Source: Actinomycetes bacterium (lineage in GTDB: Bacteria > Actinomycetota > Acidimicrobiia > Acidimicrobiales > JAKAOS01). Taken from it: 56,807 bases of DNA. The DNA lies in contig JAJYWE010000011.1 of the NCBI GenBank assembly GCA_021791675.1, forward strand, positions 1-56,807, in the 5' to 3' direction. Shown here piece after piece: positions 36,362 through 41,544 of the stretch (position 1 is the stretch's first letter; the number at the start of each line of letters is the position of its first letter). Position numbers and translations under genes: made by a program. A model generated the notes under the pieces. It did not search any database. It was not told the DNA's origin and was given only the letters and a program-made list of their open reading frames with translations.

Positions 36362-37981
36362 CTACTTCGTCAGGTACCACTGCTCCGGCGTGATGAACTG
36401 GTACGCGTTCGGCACGTACCCGCCGAGGTGGGTCGACACCACGGCCGGGAAGCCCTGGATGGGGTTGCCGCCCTCCTCGGGCTGCCAGACCACGGGGAGC
36501 TGCTTCGCGATGTAGGCCTCGTAGGCGTCCATGGCCGCCTGGCTCTCCGAAGAGGGCACCTTCGTCGTCGCCCGGATCAGCCGGTCGGCCACCGGGTTCG
36601 AGTAGTTCTCGTAGTTGGCCGAGGCGCCGGTCGCCCACAGCTCCTCGCCGGAGGGGTAGTAGTCGGGTGCGAAGCTCCATCCGCCGCCCCAGTTCTCCGC
36701 CGTCCACTGGCAGATCGACTGGTTGGGCGAGCAGGGGGTGATCGTCGAGACGACCGTCGCGTAGGGGTGCGTCGTGAGGTGGATCTGGATCCCGACGAGT
36801 GCAGCCTCCGCGGTGAGGTCTCGCATCGACAGCGCGAGCGCCTGCTCGCCGTAGGTGTAGTCGAGGTTGAACGAGATCCCCTCGCCGGCGCTGATCCCCG
36901 CGCCGCATGCCGTGGGGCCGGTGCCCGGCCGGACGCACGTCGTCCTCCCGCCCGGCACCACCTTCCATCCGTGGCGGGTGAGGATCCTGGCCGCGTCCGA
37001 CACGCTGAAGGGGTAGGGGTTCGCGAGCTGGTTCTCGTTCGCGAAGTGGTTGGGCGGCTCGGACGGGACTGGTCCGTAGTCGGGGACGGCGGTTCCGTGA
37101 TAGAAGGCGCTGATCCAACCTTGCTGGTTGACCAGGTGTTGGAACGCCTGGCGGAAGTAGAGCTGGCGGAAGATGGGGCCGACCTTCGGGTTGTTGAGGT
37201 TGAGCGGGAAGTAGCCGACGGCGAAGACGTAGCTGTTGCTCGGCCGGTAGCCGCCTGCGAGCACGCTCTTCTCCTGGGGGAGGTCCTGGGGGGGCACGTA
37301 GCCGACGGTCAGCGAGCCCGGCGAACCGGTGAGCAGGTTGAACTCCGAGTAGTCGCTCGTGAACGGCTCCTCGACGAACTTGGCGATCCTCGGCTTGTCC
37401 GGTCCGGTGTAGGAGGGGTTTGGCTCGAACGTCGCCGCGCCCTCGACCGTGAACGCGGTGAGCTTCCAGGGCCCGTCGACGACACTCCAGATCGGGCTCT
37501 TGACGAAGGCCGCCTCGTCGGTTGCCTGGCTCGCGAGGAAGTTGTAGACCGCGAGCGCTCCCTGCTTGGTCGTGTCGGGAAGGTTGGGCGAGGACGCGCT
37601 CGGCGCCGGGGCCGACAACGACGTCCGGTCCCACGCCAGTGGGAGCGGGGTGATCTCGCTCAGCTGGTTGTAGAGGTACCAGTCGGGGTTGTACGGCTGG
37701 GTGAGGTGCAGGACGATCGTCTGGGCATTGGGAAGCTGCATGGACGCGACGTTCTCGGGGAACAGCCCCTGCACATAGCCGTAGAAGTTCGCCGGGTCCG
37801 CCTTCACGAGGTTGATCCAGAACTCGACGTCCCGGCTCGTCACCGGCTGGCCGTTGGACCACATGTAGTGCTTGAGCGTGATCGTGACCGTCTGGTCGTG
37901 GTCCGACCAGACCGGGCGGTTGCCGACGGAGTAGTTGAAGTCCACCGAGGCGGTGTTGTTGTTCCCGAACCAGTAGAGGGG
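36362..37981 (-). pseudogene. 3' part of IS-disrupted ABC substrate-binding protein (family 5)
   Basis: Open in frame from ...LYWFGNNNTASVDFNYSVGNRPVWSDHDQTVTITLKHYMWSNGQPVTSRDVEFWINLV to stop; lacks N-terminus; joins in frame with 40403-40735 when the element is removed. Confidence 0.92.
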
Positions 37982-38048
37982 TTCTGAACTGCTCCAGCAT
38001 CAGTCCGTGATACACCACGTACATGTGTTCTAGTGATAGAGTGGGACC

Positions 38049-38708
38049 GTGAACCTGACCGAGTGGGCGCGTCGCCAGGGTATCCACCCGCAGACCGCCT
38101 ACAACTGGTTCCATGCGGGCACGCTCCCCGTCCCGGCGGTCAGGATCAACAAACGGACCATCCTCGTCCAGCCGGACGCAGCTCTCGGCACTCCAGGAGA
38201 GACCATCGGGCTCTACGCCCGCGTTTCATCCCACGACCAGCGGGGAGACCTGGACCGCCAAGTGGCAAGGCTCACGACGTGGGCCGCAACGACTGGTCTT
38301 CCCGTGGTCCGGGTGGAAGCAGAAGTTGGCTCGGGAATGAACGGGTCACGTTCCAAGCTCCGCCGCCTGCTCGCTGATCCGACGGTCACCACCGTCGTCG
38401 TTGAGCACCGGGACCGCCTGGCCCGGATGAACGCAGAGCTGGTCGAAGCAGCACTGTCGGCCCATGGTCGGAGGCTCGTGGTGCTCGACGACGGCGAGAT
38501 GGACGATGACCTGGTGCGGGATATGACCGAGGTGCTCACGAGCTTCTGTGCCCGCCTCTATGGACGCAGGTCTGCCCGCAACCGGGCAGAGAAGGCCCTG
38601 CGCTGCGCGGCCCACGACGTGGGGCCGATGGCACTGGCCAAGGAAGCGACGGTCAACACGGCGACGACACCGCGAGTGCCACACCCGACGGGCACGACGA
38701 GGCCGTGA
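38049..38708 (+). CDS. tnpA: IS607 family serine recombinase/transposase TnpA
   Basis: MerR-like HTH (MNLTEWARRQGIHPQTAYNWFHAGTLPVPAVRI) plus resolvase domain (IGLYARVSSHDQRGDLDRQVARL, VVVEHRDRLARMNAELVEAAL). Confidence 0.95.
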   Translation: MNLTEWARRQGIHPQTAYNWFHAGTLPVPAVRINKRTILVQPDAALGTPGETIGLYARVSSHDQRGDLDRQVARLTTWAATTGLPVVRVEAEVGSGMNGSRSKLRRLLADPTVTTVVVEHRDRLARMNAELVEAALSAHGRRLVVLDDGEMDDDLVRDMTEVLTSFCARLYGRRSARNRAEKALRCAAHDVGPMALAKEATVNTATTPRVPHPTGTTRP

Positions 38709-40396
38709 GCAGGCGGCTTCGCAAGATCTCCCCACCGTTCGTGGTGGCACCACCATCGGGCGTTCGCGTCCGCACCAGGCTTCGGATGAGCGACACCGAC
38801 GGCGAGGTGCTCGTGGCACTGGGAACCTACCTCGGCTCCCTTGCATCCAAGGACCTGGCCGAGCGTTGCCGCCAGGGCAGGCTCGATACCAAGGGGAAGG
38901 CCGACTCCCGTCGTGAGCGCAAGCGCTCGCTCACGGCTGCGAGCTCGTCCCGCTGGGCAGGGGCGATCACCCGGACCAGCGAGGACGCCTTCGAGCTCGC
39001 CATGCGCAACCTCGTCGCCGAGCGCCGGAGTCTCCAGGCCCGCATCATCCAGATTCGCCGTCGGCTCTCGGTCCCGGCTGGAGGACGCCGTGGGCGCGCC
39101 CGTGGCTATGCCACCCAGGCCGAGCGGTTCCAGAAGCAGCGTCGCTTGCAGGTGCTCGAACATCGCCTGGCCGAGGCCGAGGCCCGTTTCGACGCAGGGC
39201 GAGTGTCGATCTGCCGTGGCGGCAAAGCCCTGGCCAAAGCCCGCCGCCACCACCTGGACGCAGCTGAGCTGACCGTGGATACGTGGCGGGAGCGCTGGCG
39301 GGCGAAGCGGCTGTTCCTCACCGCGGACGGGGAGAAGGACCAGCGCCTCGGCAACCTCACGATCCGCTGGCACCCAGATGGGCACTGGGTGGAGATCGCC
39401 CTCCCACAGGGTCTCGCCCACCTCGCCAACCGGCCCCACGCCCGCTACCGGCTCTCCTGCCCGGTCGCCTTCTCCTATCGAGGGGACGAGGTGGCAGCCC
39501 AGGCCATGACCGGGGCGGTGCGCTACGACATCGCCTTCTTGCCCGAGAAGGGGCGCTGGTACCTCGATGCCTCATGGACGTACCCGGTCCAAGAGCCCCC
39601 CACCCTCGACCAGCTCCGGGAGCATGGGGTTCTGGCTGTGGACGTGAACGCGGATCACCTCGCAGCGATGGTGCTCGACCCCTCGGGGAACCCGGTCGGC
39701 CGACCGCTCAGGTTCCCGCTCTCGCTTGCTGGTCTTCCCGCTACCACCCGTGACGGACATCTGCGCCAGGCGATCTCGGATCTACTTGGTATCGCAACGG
39801 CCGACGGCTGTCGGGCCATCGTGATCGAGGACCTGGACTTCGCCGAGGCCAGAGAGGTAGGCCGAGAGCGTGCGGGGAACCGTCCTTCGCGTGGCAAGAG
39901 AGGGCGCGGCTTCCGTCGCCTGGTCGCCGGCATCCCGACGGCCACGTTCCGCCAACTGCTCGTCCAGATGGCAACCAACGCCGGGCTCGTCGTCATCGGG
40001 GTCGACCCGGCCTACACGAGTGAATGGGGCGCTGAGCACTGGCTTCGCTCCCTTCAGGAGATCTCCGTCGATGCCACGGGCCACCATGCGGCGGCCCTTG
40101 CCATCGGGAGACGCGGGCTCGGACAGCGAGCACGGCAACGGACGAGGTGTGACTCGACCCCAGCAGCGCATGGGGAAGAGAGAGCTACCCGCCCGGTCGT
40201 GCGGTCCAGGGGTGCCGGGCAACCGGCAGTCCTGTCCGAGCAGCGAATCAGGGAAACTGGGACCCGAGGGGCCAGAGGGCAGCCACACCTGCGGCAGAAG
40301 ACCCGAAGGGCTGAACGGCGTTTCCCGGTGGACCAGGTGGCCCAAGACCGTTCGGGGCCACCCGCAAGGTGGGACTTAGTTCCGCTGAGTGTCTAG
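38705..40396 (+). CDS. tnpB: TnpB family RNA-guided nuclease-like protein (IS607 accessory protein)
   Basis: RuvC-I VLAVDVNADHLA, RuvC-II AIVIEDLDF, VDPAYTSEWGAEHW, RuvC-III region GHHAAALAIGRRGLG; GTGA overlap with tnpA. Confidence 0.9.
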   Translation: MSRRLRKISPPFVVAPPSGVRVRTRLRMSDTDGEVLVALGTYLGSLASKDLAERCRQGRLDTKGKADSRRERKRSLTAASSSRWAGAITRTSEDAFELAMRNLVAERRSLQARIIQIRRRLSVPAGGRRGRARGYATQAERFQKQRRLQVLEHRLAEAEARFDAGRVSICRGGKALAKARRHHLDAAELTVDTWRERWRAKRLFLTADGEKDQRLGNLTIRWHPDGHWVEIALPQGLAHLANRPHARYRLSCPVAFSYRGDEVAAQAMTGAVRYDIAFLPEKGRWYLDASWTYPVQEPPTLDQLREHGVLAVDVNADHLAAMVLDPSGNPVGRPLRFPLSLAGLPATTRDGHLRQAISDLLGIATADGCRAIVIEDLDFAEAREVGRERAGNRPSRGKRGRGFRRLVAGIPTATFRQLLVQMATNAGLVVIGVDPAYTSEWGAEHWLRSLQEISVDATGHHAAALAIGRRGLGQRARQRTRCDSTPAAHGEERATRPVVRSRGAGQPAVLSEQRIRETGTRGARGQPHLRQKTRRAERRFPVDQVAQDRSGPPARWDLVPLSV

Positions 40397-40402
40397 GAAC
40401 GG
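40200..40402 (+). ncRNA. Candidate omegaRNA scaffold at the element right end, nested in tnpB 3' coding region
   Basis: Multiple perfect hairpins: TGCCGG-GCAA-CCGGCA (40213-40228), GGTGGCCC/GGGCCACC (40336-40362), CCACC-CGCAA-GGTGG (40358-40372), GTTCC/GGAAC (40379-40400) ending 2 nt before the insertion junction. Confidence 0.5.
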
Positions 40403-40735
40403 TCGGTACATGAGGACCTGGAACTGGCTGATGTTGGCGTAGCTCGAGTGCTGCGCGCTGATGAGGGGGAAGATGTAGTTGGGCGGCGTCGAGGGGCCCT
40501 CTGCGAAGGTGACCGTCCCGCCGGCAATCGGCGCGCCGGTGGCTGTCGAGGAGCCGGTCGTCGACGTCGCCGACGAGGAGGACTTCGCGGACGGGTGGGA
40601 GCTGCCGCAGGCCGCGAGCAGCAGCGCGGCGGCGGCGAGGCCGGCGGCGGCGCGACGTGCGCCGTGGCTCGGGCGGGAGCTCGGGGAGGGGCTCGGGCGG
40701 GAGCTCGGGGAGTCGGGGGAGGTGGTTGCGGTCAT
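40403..40735 (-). pseudogene. 5' part of IS-disrupted ABC substrate-binding lipoprotein (signal peptide + N-terminus)
   Basis: MTATTSPDS...AAAGLAAAALLLAACGSSHPSAKSS...GGTVTFAEGPSTPPNYIFPLISAQHSSYANISQFQVLMYRP, then reads into the IS (FLDTQRN-stop at 40376). Confidence 0.92.
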
Positions 40736-41544
40736 GGAGCCGGGGCCTTTCGGTGCTGGTCGAGGAAACGGAGCAGTGCGGTGTTGAAGTCGTCGGGGTG
40801 CTCCCAGAGGCAGGCGTGACCGCCCCGGGTCGTCGCCCACTGGGCGTTCGGGACGAGGTCGAAGAGCTGCCTCGAGAGCGAGACGGGGATCAGGATGTCC
40901 TGCTCCCCGGCGAGGACGAGGGTGGGCACGGCGAGGGCGCCGATGCGTCCGGTGGTGTCGTGGGTCTGGATGGCGGAGAGCTGCGCCAGGTAGGCGTGCA
41001 CCGGTTGGTCGATCATCGACAGGGCGACGTCCATCTCCCCCGCCTCGTCGGGCCGCTCGGCGAAGAACGCAGGGGTGAAGGCCCAGAGGGCCACGTCGGC
41101 CATGACCACGGAGAGCCCCGTGAAGCGCGCGAGCTGCTCCCAGAGCGCGAACCTCCGCCCGCAGAACGGCCCCGGTGCGGCGTAGGTGCAGGCGAGGGTG
41201 ACGCTCGAGAGCCGCTCTGGGTGCGCGAGCGCGTACTCCTGGGCGATCATCCCACCCATGGACACACCCACGAGGTGGAAGCGCTCGACCCCGAGCGCGT
41301 CGACGAGGCCGTGGAGGTCCTCCGCGAGGAGGCCGGTCGTGTAGGGTCCCGCTGGTTTCGCGCTGTGGCCGACGCCCCGGTTGTCGTAGCGGAGGACCTC
41401 GTACCCCGCCTCGACCAGCGCCGGGACCTGGAGGTCGTAGGTCACGAGGTCGTCGGCGAGCCCGTTGACGAGCACGACGAGCTCGTCGCCCCCACCATCC
41501 CGCCGGTAGTTGATCTCGATCCCGTTCGTCGTCGTCGTGGTCAT
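40732..41544 (-). CDS. Alpha/beta hydrolase (3-oxoadipate enol-lactonase-like)
   Basis: LVNGLADDL, RYDNRGVGHSAKP, LVGVSMGGMIAQEYAL, AGEQDILIP, GGHACLWEHPDDFN. Confidence 0.87.
   Translation of the reverse strand: MTTTTTNGIEINYRRDGGGDELVVLVNGLADDLVTYDLQVPALVEAGYEVLRYDNRGVGHSAKPAGPYTTGLLAEDLHGLVDALGVERFHLVGVSMGGMIAQEYALAHPERLSSVTLACTYAAPGPFCGRRFALWEQLARFTGLSVVMADVALWAFTPAFFAERPDEAGEMDVALSMIDQPVHAYLAQLSAIQTHDTTGRIGALAVPTLVLAGEQDILIPVSLSRQLFDLVPNAQWATTRGGHACLWEHPDDFNTALLRFLDQHRKAPAP

What the first reader, a model, noticed from the sequence alone, without database searches (positions are those of the whole stretch)
40120..40402. Candidate omegaRNA scaffold nested in the tnpB C-terminal ORF, ending at the insertion junction
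The tnpB stop (40394-40396) lies 6 bp from the element end. Past the RuvC-III region, roughly 85 residues read as Arg/Gly-rich non-domain sequence. The same DNA holds a chain of perfect hairpins: TGCCGG with GCAA (GNRA) loop, an 8-bp GGTGGCCC/GGGCCACC stem, a mutually exclusive CCACC-CGCAA-GGTGG stem, and GTTCC/GGAAC just before the GG junction. Right-end structured RNA overlapping tnpB is established for IS200/IS605 and IS607 TnpB systems; the specific structure here is inferred by eye.
Basis: partly seen in the sequence, partly recalled or inferred. Interest (0 to 1): 0.78.

Follow-up and report, generated by a model that had tools for sequence, protein, structure and literature searches.

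The report
Guide RNA hidden inside tnpB gene
The last ~255 bases of a jumping gene's nuclease gene double as a folded guide-RNA scaffold: relatives in other actinobacteria keep the RNA's base pairs and its junction-side pseudoknot while the encoded protein tail drifts freely, a rather extreme version of an arrangement already known for TnpB.

Summary
An IS607-type element (37982-40402; serine recombinase tnpA plus tnpB) sits in a solute-binding-protein gene; the tnpB stop is 6 bp from its right end. About 50 related right ends from Acidimicrobiia, Streptomyces, mycobacteria and other actinobacteria show that ~40146-40402 is a structured sense-strand RNA. On 13 scaffolds, 48 pairs are 94% kept and 26 show compensatory changes (0 of 500 shuffles as high). 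In the last 85 codons amino-acid constraint vanishes (dN/dS about 0.6-2.4, against 0.2-0.3 upstream) while synonymous sites are constrained. This matches the experimentally tested pseudoknot and right-flanking nucleotide of ISXfa1 (IS607) reRNA. Best reading: a fully nested omegaRNA guiding TnpB to the empty insertion site. Unusual: this TnpB lacks the zinc finger and has His where the third catalytic Asp is expected; no Rfam family matches the RNA. No expression or cleavage data exist.

The parts
37982..40402 (+). IS607-type insertion element, 2421 bp; both ends flanked by the GG core (left flank GGGG at 37978-37981)
   Evidence: Joined flanks restore a 650-aa SBP_bac_5 ORF; single copy in the genome by the right-end DNA
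38049..38708 (+). tnpA, serine recombinase of IS607 type
   Evidence: NF033518 transpos_IS607 195.7 bits (cutoff 110), Pfam Resolvase
38705..40396 (+). tnpB; conserved part to about residue 478 (40138), RuvC residues D313, E375, H460; no CxxC zinc finger
   Evidence: NF040570 36.5 bits (below cutoff 100), TIGR01766 19.2 bits; invariant columns in 19 homologues; alignment to a canonical TnpB
40139..40393 (+). tnpB C-terminal tail (residues 479-563): reading frame open, amino-acid sequence unconstrained
   Evidence: No conserved column; dN/dS and codon-position test; no predicted secondary structure, pLDDT about 25, in a poor model
40146..40402 (+). Predicted omegaRNA/reRNA scaffold, nested in the tnpB ORF
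   Evidence: Covariation; covariance model finds the 3' part in other actinobacteria next to tnpB
40146..40153 (+). Conserved box GGTGTGAC at the 5' side of the scaffold; read in different codon phases in different clades
   Evidence: Phase 2 in most Acidimicrobiia, phase 1 in Streptomyces, mycobacterial and three Acidimicrobiia elements, never phase 0
40153..40180 (+).
   Evidence: 10 pairs, 96.4% kept, 7 with compensatory changes
40197..40318 (+). Long-range stem 40197-40204 with 40311-40318
   Evidence: 7 pairs, 83.5% kept, 4 with compensatory changes; weaker than the others
40210..40231 (+).
   Evidence: Stem base 4 pairs, 95.5% kept, all 4 with compensatory changes
40336..40362 (+).
   Evidence: All 7 pairs tested in 24 right ends have compensatory changes, 95.8% kept
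40363..40391 (+). Hairpin H3 (CGC-aa-GGTGGGA-cttag-TTCCGCT-ga-GTG)
   Evidence: 10 pairs, 93.1% kept, 5 with compensatory changes
40347..40403 (+). Pseudoknot: ACCGTTC (40347-40353, loop of H2) with GAACGG (40397-40402) plus right-flanking T (40403)
   Evidence: Perfect Watson-Crick match in 40 actinobacterial elements of this family, right-flanking base T in all 40; mycobacterial elements have ACCGTTAC/GTAACGGT
40404..40423 (+). Predicted guide segment (first ~20 nt past the right-flanking T), derived from the interrupted host gene
   Evidence: Inference by analogy to ISXfa1 (PMC10711439)
37978..37981 (+). GGGG at the left junction, candidate TAM (contains GGG)
   Evidence: GGG precedes TTNNGAAC at 5 left ends examined and CGGG at 6 copies in Mycobacterium sp. 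SM1; the ISXfa1 TAM is GGG (PMC10711439)

Best explanation
The right ~255 bp of this IS607-type element (40146-40402) encode an omegaRNA/reRNA scaffold on the same strand as tnpB, wholly inside the tnpB reading frame apart from the last 6 nt. Shown by comparative sequence: the RNA folds into a 5' hairpin (H1), variable middle stems, hairpin H2, hairpin H3, and a pseudoknot between the H2 loop and the last bases of the element plus the flanking T. Also shown: the tail of TnpB encoded there is not under detectable amino-acid selection. Inferred from characterised TnpB systems: the tnpB transcript (or a transcript within it) is trimmed at its 5' side to the scaffold and bound by TnpB. The ~20 nt past the junction act as the guide, and the RNP recognises the empty donor site (GGG TAM, T, then the host sequence CGGTACATG...). 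Cleavage there would let the element be copied back and so be retained after TnpA-mediated excision.
For: Covariation on the sense strand; G-U exceeds A-C mismatch in the helices, 47 to 12, favouring the tnpB-sense strand as the RNA. Synonymous-site constraint in the tail only. The conserved box GTGTGAC and the pseudoknot loop are read in different codon phases in different clades, so what is conserved is nucleotides, not peptide. Pseudoknot match, including the flanking T, in 40 elements, with a concerted change in mycobacteria. RNA-only covariance-model hits elsewhere in the phylum: 9 of 11 loci tested have a tnpB of this family just upstream on the same strand, none on the other strand. Precedents: ISXfa1 reRNA pseudoknot and right-flanking nucleotide, both tested experimentally (PMC10711439); ISDra2 omegaRNA overlaps the tnpB 3' end and the C-terminal domain is dispensable (PMC10097598); [quoted passage not shown]
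Against: No expression, binding or cleavage data. The pseudoknot is almost invariant inside Acidimicrobiia, so there it does not covary; support rests on a few wobble cases and the mycobacterial change. The TnpB lacks the zinc finger and has H460 in place of the third catalytic Asp, so nuclease activity is uncertain. The AlphaFold2 model was too poor to judge the active site (pLDDT 42.8, pTM 0.30). Covariation counts include related sequences, and RNAalifold chose the structure from the same alignment.
Confidence: 0.86

Rival explanations
1. The right-end structure is a DNA feature: palindromes and repeats bound by the TnpA serine recombinase for synapsis, with no guide RNA.
For: It lies at a transposon end and ends exactly at the crossover dinucleotide GG; the terminal GGAACGG is nearly invariant.
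Against: The structure spans ~255 nt, and only the right end was seen to have it (no left-end counterpart was seen, though none was systematically searched for). G-U is preferred over A-C mismatch 47 to 12, which strand-symmetric DNA would not show. The pseudoknot includes the flanking base. RNA-model hits have tnpB upstream on the same strand.
Confidence: 0.06
2. The tail is a real protein domain (Arg/Gly-rich RNA- or DNA-binding extension) and the hairpins are by-products of GC-rich coding sequence.
For: The tnpB frame stays open to within about 10 nt of the right end, or beyond it, in 36 of 40 elements, while the other two frames carry stops in 25 and 39, so the frame is probably kept open by selection.
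Against: dN/dS in the tail is 1.0 to 2.4 (close pairs) and 0.6-0.7 (distant), against 0.2-0.3 in the core; synonymous sites are the constrained ones. No conserved residue in the tail; codon phase of the conserved motifs shifts; the stop is displaced in L002, L018, L111, L116 and L003.
Confidence: 0.04
3. The RNA is real but TnpB has lost cleavage and acts as an RNA-guided DNA binder or repressor, as in TldR-like exapted TnpBs.
For: H460 replaces the third catalytic Asp and the zinc finger is absent.
Against: D313, E375 and H460 are invariant in 19 of 19 homologues, which would not be expected if catalysis were lost; the element keeps tnpA and multi-copy families exist in Mycobacterium sp. SM1; a cyanobacterial relative has Asp at the H460 position, consistent with a D/H exchange in a working site.
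Confidence: 0.15

Closest known systems
ISXfa1 (IS607) TnpB-reRNA, PMC10711439
   Same: IS607 serine-recombinase element; right-end RNA; pseudoknot between an apical loop and the bases flanking the guide; a fixed right-flanking nucleotide belongs to the scaffold; GGG TAM, compatible with the GGG seen here at left ends (inferred here, not tested)
   Different: About 150-nt reRNA against a ~255-nt scaffold here; flanking nucleotide T here; the two RNA sequences were not compared directly
ISDra2 (IS200/IS605) TnpB-omegaRNA, PMC10097598
   Same: omegaRNA overlaps the 3' end of tnpB, tnpB ends close to the scaffold end, pseudoknot next to the guide, C-terminal domain poorly conserved and dispensable
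   Different: Y1 transposase element; ~33-codon disordered tail against ~85 codons here; zinc finger and D-E-D triad present there
RAGATH-18 reRNA with IS607 TnpB (ISFba1), PMC11061315
   Same: IS607 TnpB with a structured right-end guide RNA with pseudoknots
   Different: That RNA lies outside the coding sequence; the window RNA matches no Rfam 15 family at E<=1

Membership tests
TnpB omegaRNA/reRNA | Structured RNA at the transposon right end overlapping or following tnpB, same strand | tested here: met
TnpB omegaRNA/reRNA | Conserved secondary structure with compensatory changes | tested here: met
TnpB omegaRNA/reRNA | Pseudoknot between a loop and the bases next to the guide | tested here: met
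   Sequence match in 40 elements with a concerted change in mycobacteria; few independent changes
TnpB omegaRNA/reRNA | RNA made, bound by TnpB, guide taken from the flank | not testable with these tools
   Needs RNA-seq, RIP or cleavage assays
IS607 element | Serine recombinase TnpA of the IS607 family | tested here: met
   NF033518 195.7 bits, above cutoff 110
IS607 element | Insertion at GG without further target duplication | tested here: met
   Joined flanks restore the host ORF
Canonical TnpB (NF040570) | Score above the curated cutoff | tested here: not met
   36.5 bits against 100
Canonical TnpB (NF040570) | D-E-D RuvC triad | tested here: not met
   D313, E375 present; the position aligned to the third Asp is H460, by alignment only
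Canonical TnpB (NF040570) | CxxC...CxxC zinc finger in the TNB domain | tested here: not met
   No such motif between RuvC-II and RuvC-III in the actinobacterial homologues
RAGATH-18 reRNA | Match to an Rfam family | tested here: not met
   No Rfam 15 match at E<=1 over 37900-40800

The most novel reading that the evidence does not exclude
A widespread actinobacterial clade of zinc-finger-less TnpBs with a D-E-H RuvC site uses its own, so far undescribed omegaRNA family that is completely nested in the tnpB ORF. Selection keeps the ORF open through the RNA (the conserved GTGTGAC box, which holds a TGA, is never in the phase that would end tnpB) while the peptide is free, implying that translation through the guide scaffold itself matters, for example to coordinate making protein with releasing the RNA.
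Probability: 0.35. Interest if true: 0.68.

Novelty: new variant of a known kind. Interest (0 to 1): 0.52.

Why it matters
It gives a covariation-backed guide-RNA model, guide start and candidate TAM for a TnpB clade (Streptomyces, mycobacteria, Curtobacterium, Acidimicrobiia) whose window member scores below the curated TnpB cutoff and whose RNA matches nothing in Rfam, so its activity becomes directly testable. It is also a clean natural case of one stretch of DNA serving as ORF and structural RNA with the sequence constraint on the RNA only. If the enzyme cuts, it would show that a TnpB can work without the zinc finger and with His in the RuvC site.

Tried and rejected
Rfam search of the element: nothing at E<=1. 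Hairpin GTTCC/GGAAC: no pair with compensatory change, 76.7% pairing, no better than shuffles (one search was the same test with a one-column error). Alternative CCACC/GGTGG hairpin: 54% pairing, no better than shuffles. One search had the 3' helices shifted by one column; corrected. Phage and viral collections: no homologue. PDB search with the protein profile: no match. AlphaFold2 with 8 sequences: unusable overall; only the order of strands and helices agrees with an RNase H fold. Treating the C-terminal tail as a domain: rejected by dN/dS.

Full report
What is there. The window carries a 2421-bp IS607-type element at 37982-40402: tnpA (38049-38708, IS607 serine recombinase, NF033518 195.7 bits against a cutoff of 110) and tnpB (38705-40396). 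It interrupts a minus-strand gene; joining the flanks at the GG junction restores a single 650-aa ORF with a family-5 solute-binding domain. The element's right end occurs once in this genome.

Homologous right ends. Searches of relatives and plasmids gave about 50 related right ends in Acidimicrobiia, Streptomyces, mycobacteria, Curtobacterium and other actinobacteria. In Acidimicrobiia nearly all share a conserved 3' segment ending AGGAACGG (mostly TAGGAACGG), followed by T in nearly every case. Several near-identical copies in Mycobacterium sp. SM1 fix the element end independently.

RNA structure. On 13 scaffolds a structure of 48 pairs is kept in 93.6% of cells; 26 pairs show changes on both sides, 80 such cells against 29.6 in shuffles, with 0 of 500 shuffles as high; sliding the partners by 1-3 columns drops pairing to 36-44%. 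With 24 right ends all 7 tested pairs of hairpin H2 are compensated. The GTTCC/GGAAC and CCACC/GGTGG hairpins are not supported. In the helices G-U pairs outnumber A-C mismatches 47 to 12, pointing to the tnpB-sense strand. Caveats: sequences are related, the structure was derived from the same alignment, and single-sequence folding energy is only mildly low (z=-1.85).

Pseudoknot and junction. The H2 loop ACCGTTC is the exact complement of GAACGG plus the flanking T. In a scan of actinobacterial elements 40 have this perfect match, and T flanks all of these (the scan asked for a loop word beginning ACC, so the T is built into that count, but one search shows it independently). A few others keep the loop without a perfect match. 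Mycobacterial elements have ACCGTTAC with GTAACGGT, a change on both sides. Divergent ends GGGACGG and GGAGCGG are compatible through G-U. This is the geometry shown for ISXfa1, where the pseudoknot was tested by mutation and rescue and the right-flanking nucleotide belongs to the scaffold (PMC10711439).

Coding constraint. Core codons show ordinary purifying selection (dN/dS 0.20-0.29, third positions least conserved). In the last 85 codons dS falls (0.10 against 0.80 for window vs L016) and dN/dS is 1.0-2.4 for the closer pairs and 0.6-0.7 for distant ones. No tail column is conserved among 19 proteins. The conserved GTGTGAC box is in codon phase 2 in most Acidimicrobiia and phase 1 in Streptomyces, mycobacterial and three Acidimicrobiia elements, so its translation differs. 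The stop codon is usually 6 nt (3 in mycobacteria) from the right end but is displaced in some elements. The frame nevertheless stays open in 36 of 40, unlike the other two frames; this needs a phylogeny-aware test.

Independent test with RNA only. A covariance model of the last 72 nt, built from Acidimicrobiia, found right ends in two Streptomyces elements not used in training (E about 5e-5) and in genomes elsewhere in the phylum. Of 11 loci tested from those two searches outside the training set, 9 have this tnpB directly upstream on the same strand and none on the opposite strand. A few hits are RNA-only remnants.

The protein. The TnpB is below the NCBI cutoff for guided TnpB, has no zinc finger, and carries His (H460) at the position aligned to the third RuvC Asp; D313, E375 and H460 are invariant in 19 homologues, and a cyanobacterial relative has Asp there. 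I read this as a probably active variant site, not proven. The structure model is too weak to decide.

Placement. It works like, and by the testable features belongs with, TnpB omegaRNA/reRNA. It differs from RAGATH-18 reRNAs, which lie outside the coding sequence (PMC11061315), and is a longer, more fully nested version of the ISDra2 overlap (PMC10097598). I did not find this clade's RNA described in the papers searched, but most subscription papers, including a large TnpB census that I recall from memory and that reports rearranged catalytic sites, were not found in that library.

Noticed in passing
window 38705-40138 (tnpB residues 313, 375, 460): This TnpB clade lacks the CxxC zinc finger and has an invariant His where the third RuvC catalytic Asp is expected; some Streptomyces members read RHDAAG, and a cyanobacterial relative has Asp at that position.
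   Followed up: partly
L136:1315-1586: A ~270-bp copy of the guide-RNA region alone (88-90% identical to elements L131 and L134 in the same genome) starting near the end of the catalytic domain, without tnpB: a truncated remnant or an RNA-only derivative.
   Followed up: partly
L129:1500-1571, L092 (RNA at 1501-1572, - strand), L100:1501-1573: Further right-end RNA matches without a detectable tnpB upstream; L092 has lost the pseudoknot loop.
   Followed up: no
window 36362-37981 and 40403-40760: The element interrupts a solute-binding-protein gene (SBP_bac_5) that would be an intact 650-aa ORF without it.
   Followed up: yes
L121 (plasmid NZ_CP097321.1, about 141395-145795): An IS607 element of this clade lies directly next to an IS200/IS605 tnpA-tnpB pair on a mycobacterial plasmid.
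   Followed up: no
window 37979-37989 and left ends in L006, L014, L016, L117: Left ends share GGGTTNNGAAC; the GGG is a candidate TAM or recombinase core.
   Followed up: partly
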